Origin: Acanthopleura granulata
Taxonomy: Eukaryota; Mollusca; Polyplacophora; Chitonida; Chitonidae
Length of the DNA stretch: 64,000 bases
Assembly (NCBI GenBank): GCA_016165875.1
Contig: JABBOT010000023.1
Location: 372,001-436,000 of the forward strand
Reading direction: 5' to 3'
Shown: one piece after another, positions 20,515-37,308 of the stretch
How positions within the stretch are numbered: the first letter of the stretch is position 1
How the letters are laid out: every line of letters begins with the position of its first letter
Notes under the pieces: generated by a model
What the model saw: the letters and a program-made list of their open reading frames with translations, nothing else
Databases searched by the model: none
Told to the model about the DNA's origin: nothing
Translations under genes and position numbers: made by a program

Positions 20515-20549
20515 TGCTAAGATGTGAAAGTTCTTTCGGTAGAATGGGT

Positions 20550-20565
20550 CGCCTTGAAAAAGGCG
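20550..20565 (-). terminator. Histone-type 3' stem-loop (left arm, ORF a)
   Basis: On the minus strand: CGCCTT stem, TTTC loop, AAGGCG stem, preceded by CCCAAA and followed by ACCCA. About 10 bases further is ACCGAAAGAA, resembling the purine-rich histone downstream element that pairs with U7 snRNA. It sits 30 nt after the stop of the leftward ORF at 20596-20805, the normal spacing in replication-dependent histone mRNAs. Confidence 0.6.
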
Positions 20566-20595
20566 TTTGGGATGGCTTTTTCCGCCATGGCCTGG

Positions 20596-20805
20596 TCACT
20601 CTCCGCCTCCGGTCCGGGAATGAAAGATGACGGTTGGTGTTGCTCGTGCATCCAGCCTCCCCACTGCTTGCACGAACCGCTCCCACGCAGCCCTCCTCTG
20701 TCTCCGAGCGGTGAGATGGTGGTAGGTGATATTACCCTTTAGATAGGAACGCCGTGTCCAGTCGTACCAAGGCCTACTCCGCCGATGCACGTTACTCATC
20801 TCCAT
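20596..20805 (-). CDS. Small basic arm protein (unknown function)
   Basis: About 69 residues, starting MEMSNVHRRSRPWYDWTRR. It is rich in Arg and has a C-proximal AAWERFVQAV helix. That helix resembles DAWERLLQPA in the rightward ORF at 33.6 kb and an FWEQWRTVQAV segment in the frame at 21.0-21.2 kb, so I group these as one arm-encoded family. The start at 20805 was chosen because a repeated promoter module (GCTCTCT, CCGC, TTTTTGGCG) lies immediately upstream and the histone-type stem-loop lies 30 nt downstream. An upstream ATG at 20856 would fall inside the promoter module. No known domain recognised. It may be an accessory or early protein. Confidence 0.45.
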   Translation of the reverse strand: MEMSNVHRRSRPWYDWTRRSYLKGNITYHHLTARRQRRAAWERFVQAVGRLDARATPTVIFHSRTGGGE

Positions 20806-20834
20806 TGTGAGAGAGGAATATGAAAAATAGTCCG

Positions 20835-20890
20835 GTAAGGTTTGGAAGGGCGCCAAAAAGCGCGGCGGTTGGAGAGAGCAATTTCAGAAA
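20835..20890 (-). promoter_or_regulatory. Arm promoter module, left copy
   Basis: On the minus strand: GAAATTGCTCTCTCCAACCG, then CGCGCTTTTTGGCGCCC, then CAAACCTTACC. The same order appears on the plus strand at 33,513-33,570 and 34,785-34,850. In the 33.5-kb copy the module is followed by a TATAAAAG box. Here the TATA position is occupied by a weaker ATTTTTCATAT sequence. Confidence 0.5.
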
Positions 20891-20954
20891 CGATGCATAC
20901 ATAACTCATATATCATGCTCAGATTTTGAAAGTTTCCTTCGAGAAGGCTTGGTT

Positions 20955-20970
20955 AGTCCTAAAAAGGACC
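20955..20970 (-). terminator. Histone-type 3' stem-loop (left arm, ORF b)
   Basis: On the minus strand: GGTCCT stem, TTTT loop, AGGACT stem (one G:U at the base), flanked by AACAAC and AACCAAG. A purine-rich CTCGAAGGAAAC follows. It lies 15 nt after the stop of the leftward frame ending at 20985. Confidence 0.5.
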
Positions 20971-20984
20971 GTTGTTCTGCCCAG

Positions 20985-21321
20985 CTAACCTCCCGTAAGC
21001 TTCTCCTCAGCGTGAGGGTGAATCTGCTGCTGGTTCTCCTGGGGAGGCTGGTCATGTTGGTTGGAGTGTTGTTGGGGCTTGCCTCCTACAGCCCTCCTCC
21101 ATCCCGGCCATCCAACTAGCCAGATATAGTGGGGTGGCTCTTCCCTTCCGTCACATACGGCTTGCACAGTGCGCCACTGCTCCCAAAAAACCTGCTCACA
21201 CCTTTTACCCCTGTCGTTTAGCCATGGCGATTAATTCCGCATGAATACGGAGCGCAGCCTCATATCTTTCGTACGCCACGACGTACTCTATCATTAGTCT
21301 TCTGACGAAGCCGTCGCTCAT
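20985..21321 (-). pseudogene. Arm helical protein, frameshifted
   Basis: Starts at 21321 with MSDGFVRRLMIEYVVAYERY, an amphipathic helix, and hits a stop at 21205. Coding character resumes in another frame at about the same place and runs to 20985. It has an FWEQWRTVQAV helix and then a Gln/His/Pro-rich tail. One indel near 21,205 explains the break. A TATAAAAG box (21372-21379 on the minus strand) lies about 55 nt upstream of the ATG, and a histone-type stem-loop follows the stop. The protein resembles the ORFs at 33.6 and perhaps 35.1 kb. Function unknown. Confidence 0.45.
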
Positions 21322-21371
21322 TTTTTTCCCAAATGTCGAGTGATTGGTTCAGTACCACTTGAACGGTGTTG

Positions 21372-21379
21372 CTTTTATA
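21372..21379 (-). promoter_or_regulatory. TATA box of leftward arm gene
   Basis: TATAAAAG on the minus strand, about 50 nt before the ATG at 21321. It is preceded (further upstream) by GGCGCACTTTC, like the TTTTTGGCGCG of the 33.5-kb promoter module. Confidence 0.5.
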
Positions 21380-21534
21380 TGATTCGTGCGGATTCTGCTA
21401 TTTTTAGAAAGTGCGCCAGCCAGCCAGCGCGGACCGAACGGAAAACCGTTACAAGCATCACACCGCCATCTGTCGGGATTCCCCGTCTGTGGGGAACCCC
21501 CATTTTGTGACAGTTGTTTTTGGCATTATGTCAA

Positions 21535-21542
21535 ATTTGCAT
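21535..21542 (+). promoter_or_regulatory. Octamer motif ATTTGCAT
   Basis: A perfect octamer lies in the divergent region between the leftward arm gene (ATG 21321) and the rightward PC4-like gene (ATG 21799). Octamers are typical of H2B and snRNA promoters. A direct repeat TTTTTGGCATTAT (about 21,518 and 21,646) lies on either side. The remainder of 21,380-21,670 has no gene. Confidence 0.35.
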
Positions 21543-21673
21543 CTACCTGGTACTATTGCACTTAACTGGTACATCAGGAAATTTCCACGAGTTTTAGCAT
21601 GACGCAAAAAAAAATCGTCCGTATTATGAAAACAATTTGCACCAGTTTTTGGCATTATACCCAAAAATTGTTC

Positions 21674-21681
21674 TATATAAA
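21674..21681 (+). promoter_or_regulatory. TATA box of PC4-like gene
   Basis: TATATAAA, followed about 25 nt later by an initiator-like CACTTCAGCC. The first good ATG is at 21799. Confidence 0.55.
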
Positions 21682-21798
21682 GCCGTTCATTTCCACACTT
21701 CAGCCAGCAGTCTACCTCGGGACGTCACACTGTCAACTACCACAGCCTGCTTACCTGCCTGCCTGCCTACCTGCCTGACTTACTTTCTTTTCCTCATT

Positions 21799-23145
21799 AT
21801 GCCGAGAAGTAAACAGCAGCCATCAACAACAACAACAGCAACTGGCGCAATGAATACTGTTTTAGCTGACAAAGAAGAAGAAGTGGATGTACAGCCCACG
21901 CCTAAGAAGCGTATTAAAGTAGTTCGGCCGGTGAAGAAGATTTTGCTAAAAACCCGTGATATCAATATTTCTGATGGGTATCGTATTCGGGTTGGTGAAG
22001 GTAAAATCACCTTTGTTCAACATGTTAACCAACCTTACGAGCGCAGTATAGCCATTCCAGTGAGCGCCTGGGATGAGTTTGAAAACCTCTTACAATCACA
22101 AACCGCCCGAAGAGTAATCGGGTCTATACCAGAGAGTGAAGATGAATGTGCAATTATCGTAGCGTCAGAACAGCTGTTTCGCTTGAAAGATGGCGTTTTC
22201 TTCAGTTTGTCAAGATATAAGAATCCGCAAACTGGGAAGCCCTGGTGGTATTTGAATATTAAACAGTGGATGCAATACAGCAAGCAGGGGAAATATTATC
22301 CCAGGAAAGGTGGTATCACTTTCCGAGCTGATATGTGGAAACACTTGACCGAGGCCTGCGTATACGAGGGATACTTGGAAAAACGGATGAGGCAGTGTCC
22401 CATACAGCCAATGCATCACCTATCTCCCCACAGCCACCAATGCCTCTCACTGATGAGGAGAACAGCATACTTGATAATTTAATGTGGGGTGTAATGATGC
22501 AGCATATGATCCCTCTTGTCAAGTCAAAGAGGAACAATGTGAAGGCTGCCTCGTGCAGCATCCTAGTCAAAATCGCCAGTGTCTCGAGGCATTACAATAC
22601 ATGGATATGGAAAGTGAAATTGTAGTTGAGCAAGCAGCATTATGTTTGGATGAGACTAAGCTGCTCGAGGATTTTCGAGATTCGGCTAAAGAGGATCAAT
22701 GGAGCGATGATAAAATCCACCGGTATCTAGACAGGTGTGAGGTCCAGAAGCCTAATCCAGATTTTCCCCACATGTTCTTGCAGCGGTTGACAGGGCGAAA
22801 GTGTGAAGGTGACGCAGAGGCGTAAGTAAGTATTCTTTTAAAAAAATATGAAAGTCATTCTTTTTACACTGAGCTATATATATATATGTATAATGTTAAG
22901 TTAATTTTACAGACTAGTGTTTTCCAGGTATATACTATATAAGCTGTGGTGCAAAGTCATGTGACCTTATACTGAATTATGGATATGTATAGTTATTTAT
23001 TTATTTATTTTTTTACAGACCACCTACTTCTTCCCGCAATCGATTTCAATTTAACTCGGATCATGGAGGAAATATCAGCGTGCTTAATTTCGACAATTGT
23101 AAGGGTTTTCATTTGGGCAATATTTCATTTCGATATCAACAGTGA
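21799..23145 (+). pseudogene. PC4-like ssDNA-binding protein, spliced, with RHIM-like tail
   Basis: Start at 21799 (MPRSKQQPS) is preferred over an upstream ATG at 21637 because that lies before the TATA box. Residues 1-45 are a Thr-rich then Lys-rich linker. Residues about 130-186 (KDGVFFSLSRYKN, then WWYLNIKQW, then KGGITFRADMWKHL) have the strand pattern and KKGI...W..L ending of PC4/Sub1 transcription coactivators. Residues 50-97 look like a degenerate first copy. A CEGC...HPSQ...C motif follows, possibly zinc-binding. Two frameshifts (about 22,377 and 22,535) interrupt it. A consensus donor GTAAGT at 22822 and a T-rich acceptor ending at 23018 would add an exon (23019-23145) ending in NCKGFHLGNISF, which resembles a RHIM. 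PC4 identity is fairly confident; splicing and RHIM are inferred. Confidence 0.65.
22822..23018 (+). other. Putative intron in the PC4-like gene
   Basis: Donor GGC/GTAAGTAAG at 22821/22822. Acceptor TTATTTTTTTACAG ends at 23018. The interior is AT-rich with a TA run. Splicing keeps the frame open to a TGA at 23143-23145 and avoids the TAA at 22823. An unspliced frame ending GDAEA is the alternative. Confidence 0.5.
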
Positions 23146-23752
23146 ATACGTATCAGGGGAATGGACGTATGGGGACGGAGAGTACAACAAAACTAAGCCA
23201 TTACATGGAGAATTTATTGAATTTTGAAATTTGGTGACATGTTGTTGTTGTTAACTAATAGTGCTAGTTTTCGCAAGTTCTCGATATTATTTTTCTGTAC
23301 ATACTCTACGATTTGATTTTTGCGATTTGGTGAGGAAAAAAAATGTTATTGCTGTTAACTCATACTTCCAGTTTACGAGTTCTCGATTTATTTTTTCTGT
23401 ACATATCTTGAAGGTTGAATACTATAAAATATCGTTATATTGTTCAGTGCGTTTGTAATGTTCGAGTAAAAAAAATAAAAGAGAAAAAAAGAATTGTGGA
23501 AAAATATGTGTTTGTTTGTTTTATGATGTCGCAGTTTATCTCGATAATCGCTCTTGATCTGATTGATGTTTAGTGTTATTTATCGTGCGCTACAAAAAAG
23601 AATGGTGTTGATTTTGGATTTATTCATAGTCTAGGGGCCTCTGGCTTATGGTGCGAAGAGTATCTCCCTTTGAAACGGGAAAAGGTCTGACTGACGGTCA
23701 GTGGGAGGTAACTCATGCCAAACCTCACTTTAGCAGTTTTTGTACATGTACG
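23146..23752. other. Non-coding spacer in the element
   Basis: AT-rich, with two near-copies of a GTTGTTAACT...TTCTCGATATTATTTTTCTGTACAT-type segment (about 23,240-23,300 and 23,345-23,405). AATAAA occurs at about 23,473, plausibly the poly(A) signal of the PC4-like transcript. No gene seen. Confidence 0.4.
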
Positions 23753-23760
23753 TATAAATA
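23753..23760 (+). promoter_or_regulatory. TATA box upstream of membrane protein
   Basis: TATAAATA about 120 nt before the ATG at 23881; the likely late promoter for the integrase-side genes. Confidence 0.4.
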
Positions 23761-23880
23761 TCGCTAAATATTGAGGCTCTGTACATATGTATACTTTGGT
23801 CGAGGATAGTATAAGACGTATGGTGCTCTACAATATTTCATTATTATTTCACTGGCTACACAGGTGATAAGACGCCTAAG

Positions 23881-24099
23881 ATGAAATCGCAGGTTTTAGG
23901 ATGGAGAGAACTTGTTGATTCAGTAACCAACCTCCAAGGACTACCGAAACTCATGGACTTACAGAGCAAGTCACCCACTAAAACCCCTATAAACCCTGAA
24001 TCAATATCTCTCACGCCCTGGATGCTTTACACATCTCTAGCTGTCTGTATCACTTGCGCTGCTACTTGTTGGTTTTTAGTGAAAATGGGTATAAAATAA
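23881..24099 (+). CDS. Small single-pass membrane protein (unknown)
   Basis: 72 residues. The N-terminal 45 residues are polar (MKSQVLGWRELVDSVTNL). They are followed by a hydrophobic helix from about residue 47 to 68 (WMLYTSLAVCITCAATCWFL) and a short KMGIK end, giving a C-terminal tail anchor. It lies immediately upstream of the basic peptide and integrase and downstream of a TATA box. I do not recognise the family. Small membrane proteins are common accessory or virion proteins in related viruses, but no function can be assigned. Confidence 0.5.
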   Translation: MKSQVLGWRELVDSVTNLQGLPKLMDLQSKSPTKTPINPESISLTPWMLYTSLAVCITCAATCWFLVKMGIK

Positions 24100-24114
24100 A
24101 ACGCGGTGTCCAAT

Positions 24115-24234
24115 ATGACTTACCGCCGAGGAGGAAAGAAGAAAGTTCGATTCCATACGAGGGCAAAGAAGAAGAAGAAAGCAGGCATAACCAAATACAC
24201 ATCATCGGCCGGCTCGGCGACACTACGCTCGTGA
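24115..24234 (+). CDS. Small basic peptide (core-protein-like)
   Basis: 39 residues beginning MTYRRGGKKKVRFHTRAKKK, very rich in Lys and Arg with no acidic residue. It starts 15 nt after the membrane protein stop and overlaps the start of the integrase-like frame. Such peptides resemble adenovirus-type mu/pX core peptides that condense DNA. It could also be a decayed N-terminal piece of a longer protein, since the integrase frame beside it lacks its N-terminus. Confidence 0.4.
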   Translation: MTYRRGGKKKVRFHTRAKKKKKAGITKYTSSAGSATLRS

Positions 24235-24640
24235 TAGAGTTATTGTTGGAGGAATAGACAGTCAGTGGCAAGCTGATTTGGTTGACATGAGCAAACTAGC
24301 CAGGTATAATTCGGGCAACTGTTACCTCCTCACATACATCGATATTCTTTCTAAATATGCTTGAGTAGTCCACGTACCTACAAAGACAGGTGCTAATCTT
24401 ATTAAAGCGTTTAAAAGGATATTCAAGTCTGGACGAAAACCATTATTTTTACAAACTGATGAGGGAACGGAGTTTCTCAACAAGTCATTTCAGACATTTT
24501 TAAAGAAGCATGGGATTTTTTATTTTCATACATTTAATGAAACGAAAGCCTCCGTAATTGAACGGTTTAATCGCACCTTTAAAGGTTGTATGTATAAATA
24601 TTTCACCACTAATAACACTCGACGTTACCTGTATGTACCA
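24191..24640 (+). pseudogene. Integrase (rve/DDE family), truncated
   Basis: The catalytic core of a Polinton integrase is clear: DRVIVGGIDSQWQADLVDM with the first Asp, YLLTYIDILSKYA, LQTDEGTEF with the second Asp, and NETKASVIERFNRTFK with the catalytic Glu. It would insert the element into host DNA. An in-frame TGA at 24362-24364 stands where Trp is expected. The N-terminal zinc-binding region is missing, since the frame opens only at 24191. Similarity ends after NTRRYL near 24,635, so the C-terminal chromodomain-like part is also lost. Non-functional. Confidence 0.9.
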
Positions 24641-25685
24641 GGCGTCATAGATTACTCGGGAGGACTGACATTACCTCGATTCCTTCTTCTTCTCCGGTGC
24701 CTACTCAACCTCCAGCTTACCAAAGCCCGAACACAGCGCCTAGTATTCGAGATATTACTAGCCAAATTTGGCCTAGCGATATTAGTGAGCAATCTAAGTG
24801 CAAGACTGAACTTACTACAGCACCTGTACAGGTGAATTCATCTCAGCACATTACCGTAAACACTGAACCTACCAGCCCACCTGCTACAGCACCTGTACAG
24901 GTGAATTCATCTCAACACAGTGCCGTAAACACTGAACCTACCAGCCCACCTGCCCAGGTGAATTCATCTCAACACAGCACCGTAAAGGTTGCCCTTACGA
25001 GCCCACCTGCCCAGGTGAATTCATCTCAGCCATTTTCCTTCAACTTGACTTTGCCACTAAGCCCATGGATGTACGATGAAGCCACCCCATTTATCTGCCT
25101 TGTCAGCGGACCGACCGGAAGTGGGAAATCGGTCTTCGTCAACGTTTTATAGAGCAAGCTAGCCAACTTACGCATCCATCTCCCCAGCGTGTAGTATGGT
25201 GTTACGGCCAATGGCAACCCATGTACGCTACCTTACCAAATGTCGAATTTCAAGAAGGTGTACATAGTCCGACAGCGTTTAATCCAGAGGAATGGACTTT
25301 AGTAATTGTTGATGATTTAATGCCTGAAACAGACGAGTGTGTAACAGCGCTATTTACGAAGGGAAGTCACCATCGTAATATCAGTGTGATCTATATTGTG
25401 CAGAATCTTTATAACAAAAGCAAAGACCATAGAACGATTAGCTTAAACGCTCATTATTTAGTCGTATTTAAAAACCCTCGAGACTCTTCTCAGATTACTA
25501 CCATTGCCAAACAAATGGTGCCAGGTAAAACTCATTACGTGCAAGAAGCCTTTAAAGGTGCCACATCCGAACCTTACGGATATTTGCTTGTTGATTTCAA
25601 GCAAACTACACCCGATCATCTCCGTTTGCGTACGCATATTTTTTCTGATGATTCCATGCAGTTTGTCTACCTCCCCAAATCATAA
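24640..25685 (+). pseudogene. FtsK/HerA-type packaging ATPase, frameshifted
   Basis: Genome-packaging ATPase of the Polinton/adintovirus type. A Pro/Ser-rich N-terminal region has three to four repeats. Walker A GPTGSGKS lies at 25108-25131 and the Walker B-like VIVDDLM at about 25,302-25,322. Conserved blocks TKGSHHRNISVIYIVQN, TISLNAHYLVVFKNPRD and HLRLRTHIF complete the family pattern. The frame stops at 25150-25152, just after Walker A. The remainder is in another frame open from about 25,143, so one small indel breaks the gene. No convincing ATG precedes Walker A. The upstream side is fused to the truncated integrase, suggesting a deletion that removed the original start and possibly a neighbouring gene. 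Confidence 0.88.
24820..25026 (+). repeat. In-frame tandem repeats in ATPase N-terminus
   Basis: Units built on CAGGTGAATTCATCTCA, a CAC...GTAAA(C/G) block and ACCAGCCCACCTGC repeat three to four times with variable length (about 57-72 bp). They encode QVNSSQH...TSPPA repeats. Confidence 0.75.
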
Positions 25686-25782
25686 AAATATGAATTTTCA
25701 GGGGGAATAACTCTCACAGACATATGCAATAAAACCTCCCGACATATCACTTACTACGTCATTATAAAATTAGACACTGACA

Positions 25783-26174
25783 ATGTCAGCAAGATTACGT
25801 CGCTTTGCACCTTTGCTAAAACTTCTGGTCGAGGGTGACAGGCAGGTGAAGGACACAATTCTTCGTGGACCTAATGCTGAGTTTATTCGCTGTATGTGCG
25901 AGGTTTGTAAGAACATTTTAAATGGAAATATTCCATTGACACCAGTTCAGAAAAGGGGAAGGAAGAAACAGGCTTACGACGTCAGCCTCATAAACCAAAG
26001 GGGTCATCTCCAATTTCCCAGTATAAGAAGCGTAAATCAAAGCCTAAATCAAGAGCTGAATGGGAACGACTACAGAAGGCACTAGGGTATAGTCCCACCC
26101 CAAGCAAGACTCCATCTCGTGGTCCCTTTATTAAAAACGCGGTTATCCAAGCTATAAAGTTAGTTGGACTCTGA
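25783..26174 (+). pseudogene. Conserved Polinton small protein, frameshifted
   Basis: Begins MSARLRRFAPLLKLLVEGDR and contains FIRCMCEVCKNILNGNIPLT, followed by basic residues. This is the pattern of a short conserved metazoan Polinton protein of unknown function (ICEC...NVLKGNIPL). The frame ends at 26085. From about 25,977 another frame is coding-like (basic, PKGSSPISQYKKRKSKPKSR) and runs to 26174, so I infer one frameshift near 25,970. It lies between the ATPase and the penton-type gene, in the virion cluster, suggesting a structural or assembly role. Confidence 0.65.
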
Positions 26175-26191
26175 GACGTGGGATAAAGAGC

Positions 26192-27027
26192 ATGTTTTAT
26201 ATGAAGTTACCGAGCAACAGCTTGATGGACTATTTCCCAAATAATACATTAGCTAATTACACAGCTCAACTACCTAAACCGATTAATCTCTCAGGTGAAT
26301 GGGAGTGTGGTTTAGTGGAAATACAGTATCCGCGATTGTGGTCTAATGTTGCAGTAGGTGAGATCTGGTTTACGGTGCACAAGGACGATCTCGTTCGTAA
26401 CGAGCGAGTTGTATTACTCAAAGGCTATTACCGACACCGGACGCTATCACCTCAGCCCTCAACGCCCAACTGATGAATAGCAATAGCGCTTTTCTTAGAC
26501 CTAAAGCAGGTGAAATTCTGTTTGGCTATGACAGAGCTTCTGAAAAATATACACTGGAATTTAAATCACGCCAAACTGTAAGTTTTAGTCCACGCTTACT
26601 TGAAAGTTTTGGTCTCACCCCTGGGAATACGCAGATAACGGGAGAGGAAGGAAACAGATCACGCCAAACTGTAAGTTCTAGTCCGCACTTACTCCATGGA
26701 AATACGGTGATAAGAGGAGAGCAAGAAAAGATTCACTTTGGTTCGACTCATTCGACACGGACGGTCCCCACCCTTTACATATATTCCGATGTCCTCGAAC
26801 CTCGTGTAGTAGGGGATGTATTAGCTCCGCTACTCCGTGCAGTAGCTCTTCGTGGGACGTCTGAAGATCATGTTACTAAGTCCTTTACACATATTAAGTA
26901 TGTTCCTGTACTCAAGAAGAATTTTTCGACCATTGAAATAGATGTCAGGGATGACACAGGTAAACCTGTCCTATTTGTGCATGGCAAAGCGTTGGTAACA
27001 CTTCATTTTCGAGAGCGGCGCTCGTGA
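26192..27027 (+). pseudogene. Minor capsid (penton-type) protein, frameshifted
   Basis: Opens MFYMKLPSNSLMDYFPNNTL and continues WECGLVEIQYP, the N-terminus typical of the Polinton minor capsid (single jelly-roll, penton-like) protein. The C-terminal half has TLYIYSDVLEPRVVGDVLAP, KSFTHIKYVPV and FSTIEIDVRDDTG, also diagnostic. A frameshift near 26,437 separates the halves: the first frame ends at 26473, while the second is open upstream of it. A local duplication (SRQTVSFSP / SRQTVSSSP) lies in the second part. The protein would form vertex capsomers. The family is confident, the penton label moderately so. Confidence 0.82.
26567..26731 (+). repeat. Internal tandem duplication in the minor capsid gene
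   Basis: TCACGCCAAACTGTAAGTT at about 26,567 recurs at about 26,659. Each copy is followed by a TAGTCC...CTTACT block and a GGGAATACG.AGATAACGGGAGA-like block. The second copy is shorter. The duplication stays in frame. Confidence 0.75.
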
Positions 27028-27059
27028 CAAAAAAACCCCACAAAATTCAAAAATTTGAC

Positions 27060-27115
27060 CCTGATCACACGAGGATTCGAACCTGTGATCTTCCAATCCC
27101 TCCTACAAGATGTCA
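27060..27115 (-). repeat. tRNA 3'-half-like fragment
   Basis: On the minus strand, GGAAGATCACAGGTTCGAATCC includes a perfect B box (GGTTCGAATCC) followed by TCGTGTGATCA. The T-stem does not pair fully, and no 5' half is evident. It lies between the penton-type and PX-like genes, where no gene fragment was expected. It is either a SINE scrap or a tRNA-like element carried by the virus. Confidence 0.4.
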
Positions 27116-27563
27116 GATAGGCATCAACCTTACATCACGTACTACTGCAACCAAGGTACAACGAGGTCATTTATTAGGGAATGTTCTAAGTGCTCTTATC
27201 AAAGGGCCTCTGGTGCCCATTGCCAAAAACCTCGTGAGAAAAGCGGTGCTAGGGACGGCTCTGGGGGTTGCCGGTGATACGCTGTTTCGTCGCAAGTCAC
27301 TGGGGGAATCCCTGAAACAGCGTAGTAAGGCTGCTGGTAAAGAACTGCTAGGGACTGCTAAACGTGCACTCGTGGCGAAAGCCCGTCGTATTCTAGGTAT
27401 ATCTACACCCAGGGAAAGGCGACGTCCGCCAGGTAAACCAGCTCACCGGGGGCCTATAAAACACTCCGCTGTACCCAACCGCCTCAGTCAGCGTAGGAGA
27501 CGTTCCGGAACACGCACGGTCCGCAAGCGATCAGATATACTCCCCAGAGATATTTTTGCATAA
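27110..27563 (+). pseudogene. PX-like basic virion protein, frameshifted
   Basis: Starts at 27110 with MSDRHQPYITYYCNQG, the usual opening of this Polinton protein. It then shifts frame near 27,155 into QRGHLLGNVLSALIKGPL. A Gly/Ala-rich hydrophobic segment follows, with KSLGESLKQRSKAAGKELL and a very basic C-terminal third (RRRRSGTRTVRKRSD). The pattern, a glycine-rich amphipathic stretch plus a basic tail, is that of the adintovirus/Polinton PX protein, likened to adenovirus minor virion proteins that bind DNA or disrupt membranes. It sits between penton and major capsid genes, the standard order. Confidence 0.7.
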
Positions 27564-27582
27564 CACCCATAGTCATCCGACC

Positions 27583-28819: not shown

Positions 28820-28823
28820 ATGT

Positions 28824-28911
28824 GCATTTTTACGAATGAATGAATGAATGATTATGGCTTAACGCCACATCGGGAATATCTCAGCTATATTGTGGCGAGC
28901 ATTTTTACGAA
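28824..28911 (+). mobile_element. 62-bp family B insertion with 13-bp target duplication
   Basis: A family B head (TGAATGAATGAATGATTATGG, then CTTAACGCCACATCGGGAATAT) occupies 28837-28898. It is flanked by perfect 13-bp direct repeats GCATTTTTACGAA (28824-28836 and 28899-28911). It is a short retroposed fragment that entered just after the capsid frame. This dates it later than the element's insertion, or at least later than the gene order. Confidence 0.75.
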
Positions 28912-28917
28912 GATTGT

Positions 28918-28923
28918 AATAAA
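28918..28923 (+). terminator. Poly(A) signal of rightward cluster
   Basis: AATAAA about 100 nt after the capsid stop. A matching signal for the leftward polymerase (TTTATT at 29197-29202) lies 42 nt beyond its stop. The 28,924-29,196 gap between the convergent genes holds only AT-rich sequence with a TA run. Confidence 0.5.
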
Positions 28924-29243
28924 TCTTAATTGAATGAAATTAATCAGATATTGTTTTTATGTGTTCTTCCATGTTTATTGTTGTTGTTGTACAAACATAT
29001 GCTTATAACAAGGAATATGTTAGTATAGTGTTGCACAGAGGCTGTATTTGCTGATTAGAACAATGCATATATATATATACATTGATGGGTGTTGTTAAAA
29101 AAAATGACATATTTAATTCCAGTTGTTTGTTCTTGTTTATTGAACCAAAAAATTAATAAAAATTGAGATCTCACCAAAATAATATATTTTCTTTGTTTTA
29201 TTTACAAAATATTCAGAATCTTAAAGTGTATTTACATATGTAT

Positions 29244-32200
29244 CTAAATATCTAGGTAAGTCGTGTTTACTCCATCAGGCAAAATTTTACGTTTAGCATA
29301 AAAATACGTGAAAGCGTCCTTATGCTGTGTATAGGAACACATCTGATGTCCACGTACACGCATGCCGCGACTGACTCCCACTGCACTTCGTCCTTCCTGG
29401 AGCACCGAGAGATACAAATCCTTTTGAGCACTGTGACGGTTTACTCCTTTGCACGAAAATTTGTCGGCATCTCCACTGTCCCCAGGGTAGCAGTAATATG
29501 TTTTGGAACATAAAGCGATAATACCATCTCCACTCCATTCTACTTTAAACAGACCCAGGCGTACGTTTGTCATGTTGATAATACTCTCGACGAGGTAACC
29601 AGCGGTCACGTTCAGCCTCATAAGTTTCTCGTAGCTCAGGTTTAACCAAGGATTGCCAATTAGGGTCCGACGATGCAATGTAAGCTGAATCTGTATCTGT
29701 CTCCACGAGCTGATAATCACTGGAATGAAAATATTTTGCCAGGAAATCGTAATAGAATTCCAGCATGCGGAGTTTGGCGTATTGATACACCGTTCACCCT
29801 ATCTGTAAGGGTAAATTATATGAGATCCCTTAGTGCACGTGACCTCATAGGTATCATCATCAATTTCCTCCATGTTAATACATGCGTCTGACTGACTACT
29901 TTTCGAGCTTTCTGTAGCGTGCACACTTTCACATTCACATGGCGATCTTGATTAGTAATTGTCTTTCAATACTACGAATTTCCTAATAGCTTCACCGTTT
30001 TACCTATTAACACCTTGCTGACATCTACATCCCCTTGACGTCGTGCTTGAGTTACGTGATCAGCAAAGGTGCGAAAGCAGGTTTCAGGTGTGTATTGGAC
30101 AGCTTGATACACGCGAGTTACAACCAGTCCATGAGCCAAATACCATCTCAGCAGAGGGGTGCCCAAGAGAATTTTTGTCCCACACATACTCCCAATTGAT
30201 GTATGACGGGGCTGGGTCATAATATTATTGGCCTTGGAATATTCTTTCATAGTCGGACCGACATCTTCTACAGTGACATTTGCCTTTTTAAATATCGGCG
30301 GACATTCAGCAAAGGTTGATAATAATTCTTGGGGAACATGAATGTCACATTCCACAAACCCATACAGTTGCTGGTCTATAACTGATTTTAATAATTGATC
30401 TTCAGTAAGATGAGCTGGTGGGGAAGTATAGTAATGTCGGGACTCCCAGCTGAGCTGCTTGCCAATCTACCCAATACTCAGCCAGTCGAGGGTTTTTTTT
30501 TTTACTCCTTCGGATAAAAATTTATAGTGTCTTGTCTCACTTCTTCTATGGGTAGCCAGCGGATATAATGCCCAGCTGGCATAGGTGATGCTAAGCAAGG
30601 TAGGTATAACGCATTAGCGTCAAAACCGACAATACCCTGGCATAATTTTCTTCCCCTTATACGAGTCACTCCCTTCTCATGATAGCGATGAAATACAATA
30701 CTTGGTCCCCCGACAATATTCGATCTCAGACATTGATAGAGATCTTTATCCGCTTCCCCTATTAAGGGAAAGTAAGTTGGGAGATGTTGAAACAAGTAAC
30801 GTAAAGTGACCCCGGGAATACTAATGCAGTCTTTAAATATATCTACACGCATGGTTTGATAAAACGCTGACATCTTCCCTAAAGCTTCAAGAAATGGAAT
30901 GACGTCGAGATTATTGTACCAAATCACAAAATCACGAAGGGTTCTCATTCCACGTGATTGCCACACATTCTCCAAAGCACGGTAATTTGTTCAGAGTATA
31001 AAGTCCTTTAACTTGTTATGGAAAGCTTCACGCGGTGGCAGAGTTGTAGCATCTAAACTTGCTAAACTATCCAAGTATTCGTAACAAGACTGTCCTTTGG
31101 TCACCTGACATTCATAAGCTTTGACCCATTTATCATAACTATAATTCCGGGCTAAATAATTTCTCACGTCCAAAAATGTCAGCTGACACACTCATGTGAT
31201 CATTATTCCGCTTGATAACGTATTTTAACCCATCCGTTTTCACTAAATACTGATACAGCTGTCGCTTTATTAAATTAAAATCATATTTCCCAGAATTAAA
31301 ACCCAAAACAGGGAGTTCGGTTAGGTATGTTAAAAATCGCTCCTTAAGTTTTTCTGTGTAAGATTTCTTTTTCGTTTCGCAGGTAAAGCCACATAGCGCG
31401 GCTATACCTATACATTCATCCTAGCTGTCTAACACGTGATGGTAATGTTGACACAACAGCTTAAAACTAGCTTCACTGATCTCAGTGAGATATGCCATCA
31501 TAGTTTCAATCAAAGCGTGAGGATCACCCGTTGATACAAAACACATCAGTTTGTCATATCCAGGAACGTTACTGTTAACAGACACGCCCATGGGAATATG
31601 GAGGACAGTCCATTCTGTGTTTTCACCGCTGTTAGTTGCAGAAGGATCTAATTTTTGTAGATATGCCTCAAAATCAAAACAAGCTCTACATGGGAAATAC
31701 CTGTCCTCTTCAGCGACATCAATAATTCCTTCGTGAGCTAACTCCTCGAAAACAGTGGCTTTGTTTGTAAACACACCGCCTGGATACACTCGTTTCATAA
31801 CTCCATCACAAGTCCGCGCATGGCGTTTTAATTTGCAGGCCTTGGGAAATGCTTTATGACAAACCCTGCACAGATAAGAACGAGCGTATAAATTCATATC
31901 TTTCACCACGCTAAAATGCTTCTCGTGTAAATTAAGAGTCAGAGTAGTAGCGTGTCGCTTGGTAGACCGATAAAGACTCTCAGCGCACACATCTTTATCA
32001 ACCACTACCACTTCATACACAAGTATGTTTATGTTAAATAAATCCTCCAGAAAAGGCAGTTCGCTGACCGGAACACCTCGGAAATACCTGGTTTCCATAC
32101 CTTTAGCTTTCAAGTAAATTTTTAAATAACCCCTAGCTTTAACAGTACAGTATTTGGGGTTAGCGTTGTCTAGGTGAAAGGCTAAGCAAAGGAAGAAGCA

Positions 32201-32747
32201 CAAATGATCATCTTAAGCACCAGGTCCTCCACTCACCATGCTGTGCAAGCCTTTATTATTCTGCACGTGGCCAGGTAAATCTACTGGTGCACCGATGGGT
32301 GTGGCATGCGGTTTATGCGCATAAAACGCAACATTAGTCACATTGTTTACCCAGTATTTTGTATTCGGGCGCTGTTGCCGGGCTGATTCGATCGGATCGA
32401 TTGCTGACAAATCAGCGGTAAGTGTTTGTATATCTCCATAGGTGTGAGGCCCCTTATGCGGAAATTATACACATCCTGCAAAGGTCGATGGCGATGAAAT
32501 TGCTGACGGATAGCGGCCCAGTGACGTTGGTATATGTCGCGTAATCCTGGGTCTGTAGCCAACTCGTCATATAAAGGTATGGTGGGGTCCAAGCGAAATG
32601 AATTAGGGCTATTATTGAGGTTAACCTGGCCCTTACATTACCGACAGAGGCGGTATGAAATTCACCCTGATCATCTACGTCGCTATCTGACCCCAGCGGA
32701 CTAAACACACTCTCAGGTGAGGGCGGTTGATTGACAGGTGAAAGCAT
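29244..32747 (-). pseudogene. Protein-primed DNA polymerase B, multiply broken
   Basis: Replicative polymerase of the element. The N-terminal part has LQDVYNFRIRGLTPME and RQQRPNTKYWV. Next comes LCFFLCLAFH...HFSVVKD, consistent with the OTU-like segment of adintovirus polymerases. A CRVCHKAF...H...C knuckle follows. Exonuclease motifs: FDFEAY (31667-31678) and GFNSGKYD (about 31,281-31,304). Polymerase motifs: GFDANALYL (30601-30627), KLLGNS (near 29,975) and DTDS (29686-29697). The C-terminus ends in YFYAKRKILPDG. At least eight changes of frame or stops split it, at about 32,590, 32,450, 32,345, 32,210, 31,420, 31,195, 30,980 and 30,500-30,355, plus several between 29,971 and 29,545. The 3.5-kb length is near that of an intact gene, so decay is by small indels rather than a large deletion. 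Confidence 0.93.
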
Positions 32748-32954
32748 TGAGGAGCCCTTGGAGCGCTAGGATCTAGCAGCAGACTGAGCCCTGCGCTTTG
32801 ATGCTGAAGCGGTTACACGACCTCCAGTCTGTGAAATGGGCTGCACCTGCATAACAAAAAAGAAACCGAAATCACAGAATATGGCAAATCTTACGTTTCA
32901 AGGGAAGCAACTCGTACCGGCATATTCCTACTGTTTAATAGCTTGTCGCATGTG

Positions 32955-32966
32955 CATAAATATAAG
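32955..32966 (+). promoter_or_regulatory. TATA-like box in the divergent polymerase/basic-protein spacer
   Basis: CATAAATATAAG lies 56 nt before the ATG at 33022. The 274-bp spacer 32,748-33,021 must also hold the leftward polymerase promoter, for which I see no clear TATA box. Confidence 0.4.
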
Positions 32967-33021
32967 CCACAAAGTGTATACCTTATCAGTTTAACCTAGA
33001 ACACAGGGGAGAACGGATGTC

Positions 33022-33207
33022 ATGCCTCTCAAGAAGAAACGAAATCGATCCAGGAAATACAATACATACAAACGTCGAGCTCGGAGGAAGAGGAAGGTTG
33101 GGGGAAATAATTTACAACGAGCTATGCGGCGAAAATTCCGACAACGGAGACTTAGAAATAGCTATGAATCGCCTGGAGATTTCTACCGCCGTGTAACCCA
33201 TACCTAG
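33022..33207 (+). CDS. Arginine/lysine-rich core-like protein
   Basis: 61 residues, MPLKKKRNRSRKYNTYKRRA onward, with about half Arg/Lys in the first 48 residues and a neutral tail (SYESPGDFYRRVTHT). One intact frame with a TATA-like box upstream. It resembles protamine- or adenovirus core-type DNA-condensing proteins. About 68 nt after the stop is a degenerate hairpin followed by CCGAAAGAGTC, like the histone-type 3' ends of the neighbouring arm genes. It is one of the few undamaged frames in the element. Function inferred from composition only. Confidence 0.6.
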   Translation: MPLKKKRNRSRKYNTYKRRARRKRKVGGNNLQRAMRRKFRQRRLRNSYESPGDFYRRVTHT

Positions 33208-33275
33208 TGATTTTTGACAATCCAACGAAAACAAACGGACCAACCAAACCAACCAACCAACCCGACCTGACTATA

Positions 33276-33295
33276 GACCTTATAAAGAAAGGGTC
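33276..33295 (+). terminator. Degenerate histone-type 3' end
   Basis: GACCTT and AAGGGTC can pair around an A-rich loop. GCCCA follows, then TTCTGCCGAAAGAGTC, nearly identical to the downstream elements at 33,955 and (minus strand) 20,530. The stem is imperfect, so this call depends on the downstream element. Confidence 0.35.
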
Positions 33296-33448
33296 GCCCA
33301 ATTCTGCCGAAAGAGTCTTTCTAATAGAAAAGCACTACATTATTTTCACAGTTACTTTTTTTCCTTTATATGTGTAAAATAATTAATATATGTTTTGTGT
33401 TGTGTACATCGTAATTATACTCATAAGCGATATCGCTATGTTACTAAA

Positions 33449-33590
33449 ACACAGGGATTGAAAATCCACACCCGCTGATACGGCATAGATCCTCTCAGCC
33501 AATCAAATGCCCGGAATTTTGCTCTCTATTCGGCCCGCAGTTTTTGGCGCGCTGTCAAACTTTACAAGCCGCCCAATTCATATAAAAGGG
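33449..33590 (+). promoter_or_regulatory. Arm promoter module A
   Basis: In order: AACACAGGGATTGAAAATCC, AGCCAATCAAAT (CCAAT box), GGAATTTTGCTCTCT, CCGCAGTTTTTGGCGCG, CAAACTTTACAAGCCG, and TATAAAAG at 33581-33588. The ATG follows at 33623. Diverged copies of the same order are at 34,432-34,530, at 34,768-34,860, and inverted at 20,835-20,890. Confidence 0.6.
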
Positions 33591-33622
33591 AAACTCACTC
33601 ACTTGCCACTACAGACGTCAGC

Positions 33623-33899
33623 ATGGCTTAGGAAGAGCTACAGCGACGTGCGATCGTATACCGGCAAGCCTGCGCACAATATGAAGAGACCGTGAAAGAC
33701 GCTATGCATGACTGCATGTGGGAAAACAGAGAGCAGGAAATCAGCGAAGCTAAAGCCGTGAAAAGAGACGCCTGGGAGAGGCTGCTGCAACCGGCTATAG
33801 CAGTAACGACTTGAATGCCGATAACACCAGGCAACCAGCTAACCAGCCAGCACGACAAAGCCGGGCTAGTGCAGTGAGGCAAGTCACACCGCTGCCATA
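33623..33899 (+). pseudogene. Arm helical protein with early stop
   Basis: The ATG at 33623 lies 35 nt after a good TATA box, but codon 3 is TAG. The frame then stays open (EELQRRAIVYRQACAQYEET, later KRDAWERLLQPA) to 33814. In another frame a Gln/Asn/Pro-rich tail (ADNTRQPANQPARQSR) runs to a TAA at about 33,899, 32 nt before a consensus histone-type stem-loop. The predicted protein is mostly helical and resembles the leftward ORFs at 20.6-20.8 and 21.0-21.3 kb. Suppressed or edited TAG is conceivable, but decay is simpler. Function unknown. Confidence 0.45.
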
Positions 33900-33930
33900 A
33901 CCGTCCTTGGAGGGAACCGTGCAGTCCAAA

Positions 33931-33946
33931 GGCCCTTTTCAGGGCC
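33931..33946 (+). terminator. Consensus histone-type 3' stem-loop
   Basis: GGCCCT stem, TTTC loop, AGGGCC stem, preceded by CCAAA and followed by AAACCA. The downstream purine element TTCCGAAAGATTTG lies about 12 nt later. This fits the metazoan histone stem-loop consensus at every conserved position I know (GG base, T:A top, TTTC loop, 5' AAA). Confidence 0.75.
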
Positions 33947-33987
33947 AAACCAATTCTTCCGAAAGATTTGTTTTAGAAATTCGCCCG

Positions 33988-34066
<79 letters not shown>

Positions 34067-34079
34067 TTATGTATGCCCG

Positions 34080-34150
<71 letters not shown>
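33988..34150. repeat. Duplicated compound (CA)n(TA)n microsatellite
   Basis: CCCGTATTA, then (CA)n, (TA)n and TGAATTATGTATG occurs twice in tandem (about 33,983-34,078 and 34,078-34,161). The flanking words are the same in both. TATATGAGTTATGTATG also occurs on the minus strand in the left arm (near 20,895). Confidence 0.9.
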
Positions 34151-34152
<2 letters not shown>

Positions 34153-34225
34153 TTATGTATGTCTCGTTTTATTGTTTGTGATTTGTCCGTTTTATTTAAA
34201 AACAAAGAAAAAAATCAGCCCTCCT
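34143..34225 (+). repeat. Right subterminal block (inverted copy of 20434-20514)
   Basis: GTCTCGTTTTATTGTTTGTG, then ATTTGTCCGTTTTAT, then ATCAGCCCTCC. The left copy is followed within 0.4 kb by the TIR, whereas here a further 3.1 kb of modules precedes the right TIR. The right arm therefore looks expanded. Confidence 0.65.
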
Positions 34226-34431
34226 GACATGTAGCCCCACTCTAATTATTAAATGTATTTGTCAAAACTAAAAGCTGATTTTCACACTGCATTTGTTTTT
34301 TTTTATATTTCTGTACATACAAGTAAGCTATTGATATCTCTCTATATGTAGTCCTGTGTACTGTATGACCCCGCGAGCGGGAAACATTGTTTTTTAATAT
34401 ACTGTAAGGCAAACCACTATGCTATAGTGAA

Positions 34432-34669
34432 ACACAAGGATTGAAAATTTCCTAGAACTGCTCAGACATCGCCCACTATCGACCAATCAGAACAGCGGAA
34501 TTTGCCCTGCCTCCAGCTCGTACCGATATAGTGTACATCTGCTGTTGTGCTTCTCTTGGGGTGTAAAACACGAATTATCTCTTTACCTCTTTCATATTTT
34601 ATACCCACGCTGACAATTATGTCTATTCAGGAATTCTGTTTTTTAATTATTAAGATTATGTCTAAATAA
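34432..34669 (+). pseudogene. Second arm module, truncated gene
   Basis: AACACAAGGATTGAAAATTT, CCAATCAG and GCGGAATTTGCCC repeat the layout of the 33,449 module 983 bp earlier. A weak TATA (GATATAGTG) is followed by ATG at 34619 with only 16 codons (MSIQEFCFLIIKIMSK) before a stop. It looks like a duplicated unit whose gene has been lost. Confidence 0.4.
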
Positions 34670-34767
34670 AAGTTGATATTTAACGCTATATTCTTATGTT
34701 TCCATCCAAAAAAGAGACACGGTAAAGACACAATGCTTGTAAATGCAGAAAGCCCACGTGACCGCTG

Positions 34768-34860
34768 TGAACCAATGAGAAATGGTGAAATTGCTCTCTC
34801 TGACCACCGCACTTTTTGGTATGCTGCCGCTGCCGGAGTTTACAAGCACCGGTATATTTT
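34768..34860 (+). promoter_or_regulatory. Arm promoter module B
   Basis: AACCAATGAG, GAAATTGCTCTCTCTGACC, CCGCACTTTTTGG, GAGTTTACAAGCACCGG and a TATATTTTT box: the same order as the 33.5-kb module. No intact ORF follows directly. A further CCAATCAGCG occurs at 34,912 before the 35.1-kb ORF. Confidence 0.5.
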
Positions 34861-35089
34861 TTTCTAAAAACAACTCCCGGAGTACACCCGTGCGCGTATT
34901 TTTTTTCTTCACCAATCAGCGCTCAGATAATTCCAAAATCCTCAGATAATTGCTTTCGTTTAGATCCGAGCTGCTGCTATGTGGTCTGTGAGCATTGGTG
35001 ACAGACGCACAGTCACTCTACTGCATTTCTACGAGAGCTGATTTCACGACAAAAAACCAGAGAGGAAGATTTTGGATTCATTCACGGAG

Positions 35090-35413
35090 ATGATTATTCG
35101 ATTACGAGATTGCGCCGGCATCGTGGTACGTACAGGGGACCCTGAAACGGATGGAGGAGAGTTATGGCGCTTCCTCCTGAAGAAACGACTGGAATACTTT
35201 TATACGGAGTGTGAAACCGCCTATTTAAAATACATGGAAGCCTTGGAGCGAGAGGTTATGGTGGGACCAGGAACAGAGTTTAGAAGACTGATCGAGTTAC
35301 ACGCAGCAGAGGTGAACGACCTGCAGTACATAATGGAAAGGAATCATGTGAGACTTTTACGTGCGCAGGCAGAATATAGACATTTCAAAGAACCACCCAA
35401 CAACAACAACTAA
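35090..35413 (+). CDS. Arm helical protein (intact frame, unknown)
   Basis: 107 residues from the ATG at 35090 (MIIRLRDCAGIVV). Six codons upstream, in frame, a TTG (35072) stands where related ORFs would begin, so an original ATG may have mutated. It is predicted almost wholly helical: LKKRLEYFYTECETAYLKY, then EFRRLIELHAAEVNDLQYIM, ending PPNNNN. Charge pattern and size resemble the other arm ORFs, but the AWERL-type motif is not evident. It faces the right terminus. No clear histone-type stem-loop directly follows; the next is 470 nt away. Function unknown. Confidence 0.5.
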   Translation: MIIRLRDCAGIVVRTGDPETDGGELWRFLLKKRLEYFYTECETAYLKYMEALEREVMVGPGTEFRRLIELHAAEVNDLQYIMERNHVRLLRAQAEYRHFKEPPNNNN

Positions 35414-36852
35414 GTTTCATAACAACGCGTATCTGTGGCTGCTGGCTGGCTGAGGGATCTCTTATTCTTCACGAATCGTGGCAAGGCCTTGTTCTTCATG
35501 CAGTTTGCGAAGCACTTCTCGTACAAGGCGGTATACCTCGCTGGAATGTACATGCCGCATCTTTCCTCCGCCTTTATCACAGGAAACCTCCTGTGCAGGG
35601 ATCATTTTCACATCTTTTGACATCCTCCTGTGTATCTCTTAGCCTGACCAAGTCATTGGAAACCTCCTGCGTATGGATCTTAGGAAAAATGTCTATACCG
35701 CTGCTTTTCCTCCCTCTTTTTCTCTTGACCATTGGACTAACAGCGCCAAGTTTAATCGGTGATAATCAGTGACAAGATGTGTGTACCGTCGCTTTCCTTC
35801 CTCATCCTACCCCCTCTTCTAGACCCTTCTCCTATTATAATCACGGCTTTTCTTCATCGTGGACTCTCCCTATATCCAAAAGCTCTTTTCAGAGCCACCC
35901 ACCCTGTCAAAAGGACTTTCCGAAATATGAGCAGTATGGTTTTTGCATGTTTTTGGGATGTTTTTTTTGGCATGTTTTTGGATGTTTTGGCCTTTTTTGG
36001 ATTATTTTATTTATTTATTTATTTGTTGGTTACTTTTTGTGATTTATCCATTTTGTCTACGCCTGACGTCGCCAACCCCGGTTTATTGTACACTAGGTGA
36101 TGTCTGATGTTCACAGCGTAGTATAATTTGTGAGCACCTGACAGTCATCTAGCGCACGGCAGACCATGTCAACACTCCAGAGATGGATCAAGCACAACCT
36201 TGCTGTACACTATACTACATTGTCTATTTATAACGGTCGATGGTCACAGATGTAGTTAGTGTGCAACGCCCAACTCCACCTACCAGAATAGCCTACACGG
36301 ACGGAGTAGTGGCTATATGGGAGGAACACTAAACTCTCACTCGGTATATTGACATTATAATTATAACTATCAATGTATTGGGAAAGAGTATATTGTCCCA
36401 TCCCCTCAACACAACCTACCTGGAAAATCTACGCCAATGGACCAATGGGTATATGCCTGGTACACTTTACAGAGCCTATGTACATTATTTTAATTGTTAA
36501 TGTTCATAAGCTCCGTAAATTGTGCCACGCCCTCAACACCGACTACCCCAAGAAAACCCCTACACCGATGGATAAATGCTTGTTTGTTTTTTCATGTACT
36601 CTGTTTTATGTATTGTGTTTCTTTGTTATTTATATGTCTGTCTGTGATTGTCGTGACATCACACACCGTGATGTCTCATAATCAAACAAAGATTAACCCC
36701 TAACATTCACTGCCCCTTGACTTATCATATATATAAATATAAATACGACACACTATGCTCTGAAAATGTATACTCACAACAGTATAATATATATATATAC
36801 TCACCATTCTTTCTCCATCCATACAACTTTCCTCTCCATGTCCAGTTCGATG
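35414..36852. other. Right arm, degenerate repeated region without clear gene
   Basis: Three similar short openings, ATGTACATGCCGCATCTTTC (35,549), ATGTCTATACCGCTGCTTTT (35,691) and ATGTGTGTACCGTCGCTTTC (about 35,778), suggest tandem copies of a small gene. The second encodes a 27-residue signal-peptide-like MSIPLLFLPLFLLTIGLTAP before a stop. AAACCTCCTGTG/CGTA blocks repeat between them. From 36,260 to 36,570 three CCAACTCCACC / CAACACAACCTACC / CAACACCGACTACC blocks also look related. Nothing identifiable by family. Confidence 0.35.
35881..35896 (+). terminator. Histone-type 3' stem-loop (right arm)
   Basis: AGCTCT stem, TTTC loop, AGAGCC stem. The base pair is A:C instead of G:C, but the 5' flank CCAAA and 3' flank ACCCA are exactly the histone consensus. 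A purine-rich TCAAAAGGACTTTCCG follows. Which ORF it served is unclear. Confidence 0.6.
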
Positions 36853-37097: not shown

Positions 37098-37308
37098 CCT
37101 TTTAATGTTATCATCACGTGCACACCGCATGATAGGAAAAAAACAAATAATACCTTTCACCTTACCAAAACCTATGACGTCATAAAGGTAACTCCCTCAT
37201 GCACCTGATCACGCCCACACCACGTGATAGGAAAAAAAACTCCTCCGACCTCCCCCGTATCCTGTTCACTCCATGACCCCCTACCCCCTCCCACCACAAC
37301 CTATCACA

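What the first reader, a model, noticed from the sequence alone, without database searches (positions are those of the whole stretch)
20550..35896. Histone mRNA-type 3' ends on small genes of a Polinton-like element
Four 16-nt hairpins (20550-20565 and 20955-20970 on minus; 33931-33946 and 35881-35896 on plus) have the replication-dependent histone layout. They share a 6-bp stem, TTTC or TTTT loop, 5' AAA-type flank and 3' ACCCA-type flank. About 12 nt later comes a purine element (CCGAAAGA, CGAAGGAAA, AAAAGGA). A fifth, degenerate copy is at 33276-33295. Two lie 15 and 30 nt after stop codons, and a third lies about 32 nt after a frameshifted stop. This suggests that the element used SLBP/U7 processing, tying expression to host S phase. 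I know of no description of this in Polintons or adintoviruses.
Basis: partly seen in the sequence, partly recalled or inferred. Interest (0 to 1): 0.88.

Follow-up and report, generated by a model that had tools for sequence, protein, structure and literature searches.

The report
Virus-like element with histone-type mRNA ends
Several small genes of a virus-like mobile element in an animal genome carry the same 3'-end signals that this animal puts on its own histone genes, which would likely make their messages tailless and tie them to the time when the cell copies its DNA.

Summary
The hairpins are real and above chance: 4 sites with the histone layout in 64 kb against 0.18 expected, with Rfam Histone3 scores of 32.8, 28.8, 28.8 and 21.2 bits, all under the 34-bit cut-off. 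They sit on small genes near both ends of a decayed ~17.3-kb element with 77-nt terminal repeats, an integrase piece and a Polinton-type packaging ATPase. The same genome holds diverged copies whose ends carry the same units, several with open frames ending 30-37 nt before the stem. Stems differ between units with matching changes on both arms. Host H3 and H1 genes have the same signal: flank, stem, ACC, GAAAGA-type purine block and a third block TCTGAGCAC; BLASTN links one Polinton 3' end directly to host H3 3' ends. So the element most likely uses host SLBP/U7 processing for a set of small helical proteins. Against: close copies show no excess conservation of the stem. Not shown: RNA ends, host U7 and SLBP (genome search not answered), protein function. 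My paper searches listed nothing on this in Polintons.

The parts
20049..20125 (+). left terminal inverted repeat
   Evidence: 77 nt, 94% complementary to 37306-37382
37306..37382 (-). right terminal inverted repeat
20596..20805 (-). unit A open frame, 69 aa, stop 30 nt before stem
   Evidence: longer relative of 105 aa in L077
20550..20565 (-). unit A histone-type stem-loop CGCCTT TTTC AAGGCG
   Evidence: Histone3 28.8 bits
20532..20539 (-). unit A purine block CCGAAAGA
   Evidence: host H3 genes have CGAAAGA or TGAAAGA
20514..20522 (-). unit A third block TCTTAGCAC
   Evidence: host H3 has TCTGAGCAC
20850..20886 (-). unit A promoter block with TTTGGCGC (E2F-type by recalled consensus)
   Evidence: 88% like 34786-34819
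20985..21230 (-). unit B open frame remnant, 81 codons, stop 14 nt before stem
   Evidence: relative of 108 aa in L080 with stop 36 nt before stem
20955..20970 (-). unit B stem-loop GGTCCT TTTT AGGACT
   Evidence: Histone3 21.2 bits
20933..20941 (-). unit B purine block CGAAGGAAA
20915..20923 (-). unit B third block TCTGAGCAT
33543..33550 (+). unit C TTTGGCGC (E2F-type by recalled consensus)
33581..33588 (+). unit C TATA box TATAAAAG
33623..33900 (+). unit C coding remnant (stop after 2 codons, then other frames)
   Evidence: L037 copy open to 30 nt before the stem
33931..33946 (+). unit C stem-loop GGCCCT TTTC AGGGCC
   Evidence: Histone3 32.8 bits; identical 16-mer in host H3 and H1 genes
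33959..33966 (+). unit C purine block CCGAAAGA
35072..35413 (+). unit D open frame, 113 codons, TTG where the other D frames have ATG
35881..35896 (+). unit D stem-loop, 5 of 6 pairs (A.C first)
   Evidence: Histone3 28.8 bits; GGCTCTTTTCAGAGCC in most other copies
35909..35915 (+). unit D purine block AAAAGGA
   Evidence: GAAAGGA in most copies
33276..33314 (+). possible degenerate fifth unit behind a basic 61-aa frame (33022-33207)
   Evidence: CCGAAAGA at 33307 but no Histone3 hit: doubtful
24365..24835 (+). integrase piece
   Evidence: PF00665, 26.1 bits, E 1.1e-5, under Pfam's cut-off of 32.6
25080..25685 (+). packaging ATPase
   Evidence: 4074 homologues at E <= 1e-3, many of the 120 listed with PF04665/PF02456

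Best explanation
Small genes at both ends of this Polinton carry the same 3'-end signals as the host's histone genes, so their transcripts are predicted to be cut by the host's SLBP/U7 machinery just after the hairpin and left without a poly(A) tail. Shown: the signal (stem-loop, usually with CCAAA/CCAAC before it and ACC after it; a purine block 10-13 nt on; in most units a TCTGAGCAC-type block 26-34 nt after the stem) is present on four units in the window, on units of other copies, and on host H3 and H1 genes. Inferred: SLBP binds the stem, U7 snRNA pairs with the purine block, and the histone cleavage complex cuts after ACC(C)A. Inferred: because such mRNAs are made and kept in S phase, and because two of the four window units have a TTTGGCGC (E2F-type) block upstream, the small proteins are made when host DNA is replicated. 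The proteins, about 100-118 aa, are probably two-helix hairpins and likely paralogues; what they do is unknown, and an early, S-phase-linked role is the likeliest guess.
For: Layout 4 observed vs 0.18 expected. Histone3 hits on all four. Of 71 Histone3 matches in the own genome (67 over cut-off; only the best candidates are scored, and the window's own units are not even listed) I examined 51: 27 lie in DNA that aligns with this element, 21 in two tandem arrays, 1 behind a host H1, 2 elsewhere. Units not used to find the copies: unit C keeps six pairs (G-U counted) in 11 of 14 copies that have it; in the left ends of 4 copies 11 hairpins were found by a four-pair pattern, 9 with six pairs. Covariation: 4 of 6 pairs change on both sides; 23 such cells vs 7.5 shuffled, score 0.475 vs 0.257 (both 0 of 500), at most 0.128 when slid. 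Host H3: stem 31-32 nt after the stop, same blocks. Unit C matches three host H3 3' ends at 80-93% over 30-51 nt. Third block in 18 of 26 units; the pattern hits 5.2% of random 40-nt stretches of element DNA. Frames end 30-37 nt before the stem in L048-D, L037-C, L077-A, L078-B2, L080-B. L048 D protein is 47-49% identical to other D, signal kept. D against L048: dN 0.36-0.42, dS 0.84-1.01.
Against: No RNA evidence. Host U7 and SLBP not seen (search not answered), so pairing is untested. Among 13 close unit-C copies the stem is not better conserved than other 16-nt windows (0.909 vs median 0.904; 160 of 360 windows as high or higher). In the covariation test the number of pairs changed on both sides (4 vs 3.1, 157 of 500 shuffles) and of pair types (9 vs 8.1, 169 of 500) do not exceed shuffles, and relatedness is not corrected. 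D copies were all found through their hairpin; a left-end unit that had lost its hairpin would not be counted, and L079 shows none for unit B. The window units score below Rfam's cut-off and its genes are broken. In the close subfamily D stems lie 85-467 nt after the stop. AATAAA is rare after the stems (1 of 26) but not clearly rarer than expected (9.6% of random 200-nt stretches), and two units have AATAAA/ATTAAA 32 nt before the stem. No TTTGGCGC was found in the 160 nt before D frames, nor before A in L080.
Confidence: 0.8

Rival explanations
1. Passive relic: an ancestor of the element picked up a histone gene's 3' flank once, the unit was duplicated, and the hairpins now do nothing or act only as ends of transcription.
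For: The units share promoter and tail sequence, so they are duplicates; close copies show no excess conservation of the stem.
Against: Different stems with matching arms between units, the signal kept in L048 where the coding part of unit C no longer aligns, and coding constraint on D.
Confidence: 0.12
2. The hairpins act in DNA, for example as replication or packaging signals near the ends of a linear genome.
For: They lie towards both termini.
Against: They are oriented with the genes, follow stop codons, carry the histone-type loop and downstream blocks, and match the host's histone 3' ends.
Confidence: 0.03
3. The units are host genes (like the tandem-array genes with the same kind of 3' end) carried off by the element, and serve no function of the element.
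For: This genome has arrays of other small non-histone genes with such 3' ends.
Against: The D hairpin region is in 27 examined stretches of element DNA including a diverged subfamily; the array protein and D show no homology by profile comparison (probability 0.3%). The C slot does differ between copies.
Confidence: 0.05

Closest known systems
Replication-dependent histone mRNA 3' ends (SLBP/U7 processing; Rfam RF00032 Histone3)
   Same: Six-base stem, mostly TTTC/TTTT loop, CCAAA/CCAAC before and ACC after, purine block, mostly short distance to the stop, small genes; same third block as host H3 genes.
   Different: The genes are not histones and belong to a mobile, virus-like element; window copies score 21.2-32.8, under the 34-bit cut-off.
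Polintons/Mavericks and adintoviruses
   Same: Terminal inverted repeats, rve integrase piece, A32/IVa2-type packaging ATPase, polymerase-like frames (by eye).
   Different: My paper searches listed no histone-type mRNA end for them; the small unit proteins scanned match no Pfam family above its cut-off.
Oncoid genes of adintoviruses (passages of PMC11071296)
   Same: Small accessory genes of related viruses, discussed there with candidate oncogenes.
   Different: Oncoids are defined by short linear motifs; I tested none by tool and saw no LxCxE (recalled motif) by eye.

Membership tests
Replication-dependent histone 3' end | Stem-loop of histone layout | tested here: met
   the 35881 copy has 5 of 6 pairs
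Replication-dependent histone 3' end | Rfam Histone3 gathering score | tested here: inconclusive
   Not reached by the four window copies; reached by unit C in L056, L061, L063 (34.8) and by D in L071 and L072 (35.1, 36.9), and by 26 of the 27 element hits examined, a list of best candidates; not by any left-end unit (at most 30.2)
Replication-dependent histone 3' end | Downstream element complementary to U7 snRNA | tested here: inconclusive
   Purine blocks present and like the host's; host U7 not obtained
Replication-dependent histone 3' end | Stem within about 50 nt of the stop | tested here: inconclusive
   14-37 nt for A, B, B2, C and L048-D; 85-467 nt for D of the close subfamily
Replication-dependent histone 3' end | Cleaved, tailless mRNA bound by SLBP | not testable with these tools
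   needs RNA or binding assays
Histone genes | Encodes a histone | tested here: not met
   No Pfam histone match for window A, B, D or L077-A, L078-B2, L080-B, L022/L026-D; unit C was not scanned
Polinton/Maverick | Long terminal inverted repeats | tested here: met
   77 nt, 94%
Polinton/Maverick | Retroviral-type integrase | tested here: met
   PF00665 E 1.1e-5 on one piece, under Pfam's curated cut-off
Polinton/Maverick | FtsK/A32-type packaging ATPase | tested here: met
Polinton/Maverick | Protein-primed family B polymerase | tested here: inconclusive
   Frames at 29244-32212 show a DTDS motif by eye (recalled); no Pfam polymerase match on the broken pieces
Polinton/Maverick | Jelly-roll capsid proteins | tested here: inconclusive
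   No Pfam match on candidate frames

The most novel reading that the evidence does not exclude
An integrating animal DNA virus lineage runs a whole set of its own small genes, about five per element, on full histone-gene logic: short genes, E2F/TATA-type promoters and SLBP/U7 3' ends, giving tailless, S-phase-only viral messages. This would be the first virus known to me to write its mRNAs as histone mRNAs.
Probability: 0.62. Interest if true: 0.93.

Novelty: new variant of a known kind. Interest (0 to 1): 0.86.

Why it matters
Tailless mRNAs ending in the histone stem-loop are held to be a mark of histone genes. A DNA virus lineage that uses this ending on its own genes would show a new way to couple viral expression to host S phase and to do without poly(A), and gives natural, repeatedly duplicated test cases of what the SLBP/U7 signal needs. 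The third shared block (TCTGAGCAC) may be a further part of the signal in this animal.

Tried and rejected
Viral contig scans with a polymerase piece, the ATPase alignment and a histone stem pattern gave no relatives; the two pattern hits (L001, L002) share one sequence with a mispair in the stem and are taken as chance. Phage records: no match with the polymerase piece. D protein (L026): 17 candidates, none at E <= 1e-3. Homology of the tandem-array protein to D: not shown. A first conservation count put the stem at 0.92, above the neighbouring blocks, but it held host and distant rows; without them the excess vanished, so I do not use it. Scarcity of AATAAA is not clearly beyond what random stretches give. 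Unit promoters found no match in the host histone or array loci by BLASTN. Models: P0121, a homologue of the array protein (pLDDT 88.5), and window D alone (67.5) are mainly two long helices; I did not search them against libraries, since such hairpins match widely.

Rows dropped: the 29-row stem alignment leaves out L039-C (stem broken), L064-C (stem deleted), several copies of the same stem and most D copies; 95.7% paired would be lower with the first two. 20 of 71 genome hits were not fetched. The 15 frames include L071, which repeats L048, and leave out shorter or broken D frames, the window's among them. L044 has a further C-slot hairpin that is not among the 14.

Full report
What is there. 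The window is G000:C23:372001-436000 of a 606.5-Mb assembly. Between inverted repeats 20049-20125 and 37306-37382 lies a ~17.3-kb element with an integrase piece (PF00665) and a packaging ATPase with 4074 homologues, many of the 120 listed carrying PF04665/PF02456. Frames at 29244-32212 look like a Polinton-type polymerase by eye; Pfam did not confirm it. I call it a Polinton on repeats, integrase and ATPase. The copy is broken in many frames.

The hairpins. Four sites have the histone layout, all inside the element; chance gives 0.18 (maximum 2 in 400 simulated sequences), with a pattern written after the sites were known. Histone3 scores are 32.8 (C, 33931), 28.8 (A, 20550), 28.8 (D, 35881) and 21.2 (B, 20955), all under the curated 34. 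Five sites behind host histone frames score 30.2-37.4. The fifth site claimed at 33276 has no Histone3 hit.

Copies. A genome-wide Histone3 search gave 71 matches, a lower bound that does not even list the window's own units. Of 51 examined, 27 align with this element, 21 have the 3' end of two tandem arrays, 1 follows a host H1 gene and 2 are elsewhere. Most element copies have a D stem of GGCTCTTTTCAGAGCC with ACCCACCCTGTCGAAAGGA or a near variant after it. They were found by this hairpin, so its presence is no test. Units not used for finding them are a fairer one. Unit C is present in 14 copies (window included): 11 keep six pairs, L039 and L060 have broken stems, L064 lost it. In other copies alignment with the window stops near 33605 and the C slot holds different sequence (L034, L035, L055, L059, L062, L065-L068); of these, L055, L059, L062 and L065-L068 were scanned and gave no Histone3 hit in the stretch fetched. 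Left ends of four copies show 11 hairpins, including a unit B2 whose stem is not found in the window; 9 have six pairs, 2 have four; the pattern needed four pairs, and L079 shows none for unit B. Histone3 scores of left-end units were 21.6-30.2 where listed, none over the cut-off.

Anatomy of an open unit. L077 unit A: TTTGGCGC, TATAAAAG 58 nt on, ATG 45 nt further, a 105-aa frame, stop, 37 nt, stem. L078 B2: 101 aa, 36 nt. L080 B: 108 aa, 36 nt. L048 D: 111 aa, 30 nt. Host H3: 136 aa, 31-32 nt; tandem arrays: 106-107 aa, 37 nt. In the close subfamily D is 85-467 nt from its stem. TTTGGCGC is E2F-type by recalled consensus; it lies before A and C in the window and before A in L077-L079, not L080; D frames have none in 160 nt, L048 D has TTTTTGGCACA and TATAAAA.

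The host comparison. Host H3 (L053): TCCAAC GGCCCTTTTCAGGGCC AACCAAAACCTCGAAAGAGTTTTTCTATCTGAGCAC. The unit C stem is the same 16-mer. BLASTN with unit C finds three host H3 3' ends at 80-93% over 30-51 nt, and the H1-like site at 85% over 41 nt. A third block (TCTGAGCAC, TCTAAGCAT, TATGAGCAC) begins 26-34 nt after the stem in 18 of 26 element units, 3 of 5 host sites, 1 of 2 arrays and 2 of 2 other sites; the same loose pattern hits 5.2% of random 40-nt stretches of element DNA. AATAAA lies within 200 nt after the stem in 1 of 26 units, against 9.6% of random stretches, so it is not clearly depleted; there is simply no regular poly(A) signal.

Selection. Across 27 distinct stems 95.7% of cells pair (shuffles 84.3%); 23 cells change on both sides (7.5 shuffled) and the score is 0.475 (0.257), both 0 of 500; sliding the partner destroys it. 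The number of pairs changed on both sides (4 vs 3.1) and of pair types (9 vs 8.1) is not beyond shuffles, and relatedness is not corrected. The plain form of the result is that four unit stems (GGCCCT, CGCCTT, GGTCCT, GGCTCT) each have their matching arm. D shows dN 0.36-0.42 against dS 0.84-1.01 with L048, and a median ratio of 0.52 over 94 usable pairs. Against this, among 13 close C copies the stem is not more conserved than its surroundings: dead copies drift.

What the genes encode. No Pfam family above its cut-off for the unit proteins scanned. B2 and B are 31% identical in a five-sequence alignment; A and D share only a core around EYxxAYxxYE, so a common origin is likely, not proven. 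The window D model is two long helices after a short one, at low confidence.

Literature. Search listings only, except passages of PMC9756948 (stem-loop and HDE requirement) and PMC11071296 (adintovirus definition, Oncoid, Histoid). Searches combining Polinton, Maverick, adintovirus or virus terms with histone stem-loop terms listed no paper whose title or shown abstract reports histone-type 3' ends in Polintons or adintoviruses. Subscription papers are mostly not held; the adintovirus founding paper is not.

Verdict. The step from signal to processing is inferred but rests on likeness to the host's own histone signal. The step to S phase is a further inference.

Noticed in passing
L003-L010, L024 (C31, period ~1455 bp) and L012-L021, L033 (C10, period ~1860 bp): Two tandem arrays of a non-histone, single-frame gene (106-107 aa, 62% identical between arrays, acidic tail) with a TATA box and a histone-type 3' end 37 nt after the stop. 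20 homologues in public proteins; homologue P0121 is predicted as a two-helix hairpin (pLDDT 88.5). Possibly a host gene family expressed like histones.
   Followed up: partly
L041 about 2217-2262 minus; L051 about 2076-2122 minus: Two more Histone3 sites (37.2 and 29.1 bits) with no match to the element and no histone motif found nearby.
   Followed up: partly
G000:C27:3241708-3284920: Five Histone3 hits of equal score on one strand, 9.8-13.5 kb apart; the first is a D unit (L032). A tandem series of element pieces?
   Followed up: no
window 20526-20537 minus, host L053 and others: The purine block is often followed by CTTTC or TTTTC, giving GAAAG-N-CTTTC in element units and a like pattern in host histone genes; it may pair with itself or with U7.
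   Followed up: no
L044 1961, L048 2075, L077 1007, C10 array: Loop TCTC instead of TTTC in some element and array stems, with the stem kept.
   Followed up: no
window 21637-22479 plus: Frame with a weak PC4 (transcription coactivator p15) match, 21.5 bits, under the cut-off of 25.
   Followed up: no
window 18757-19164: Six 51-nt-spaced tandem repeat copies overlapping an open frame of 142 aa just outside the element.
   Followed up: no
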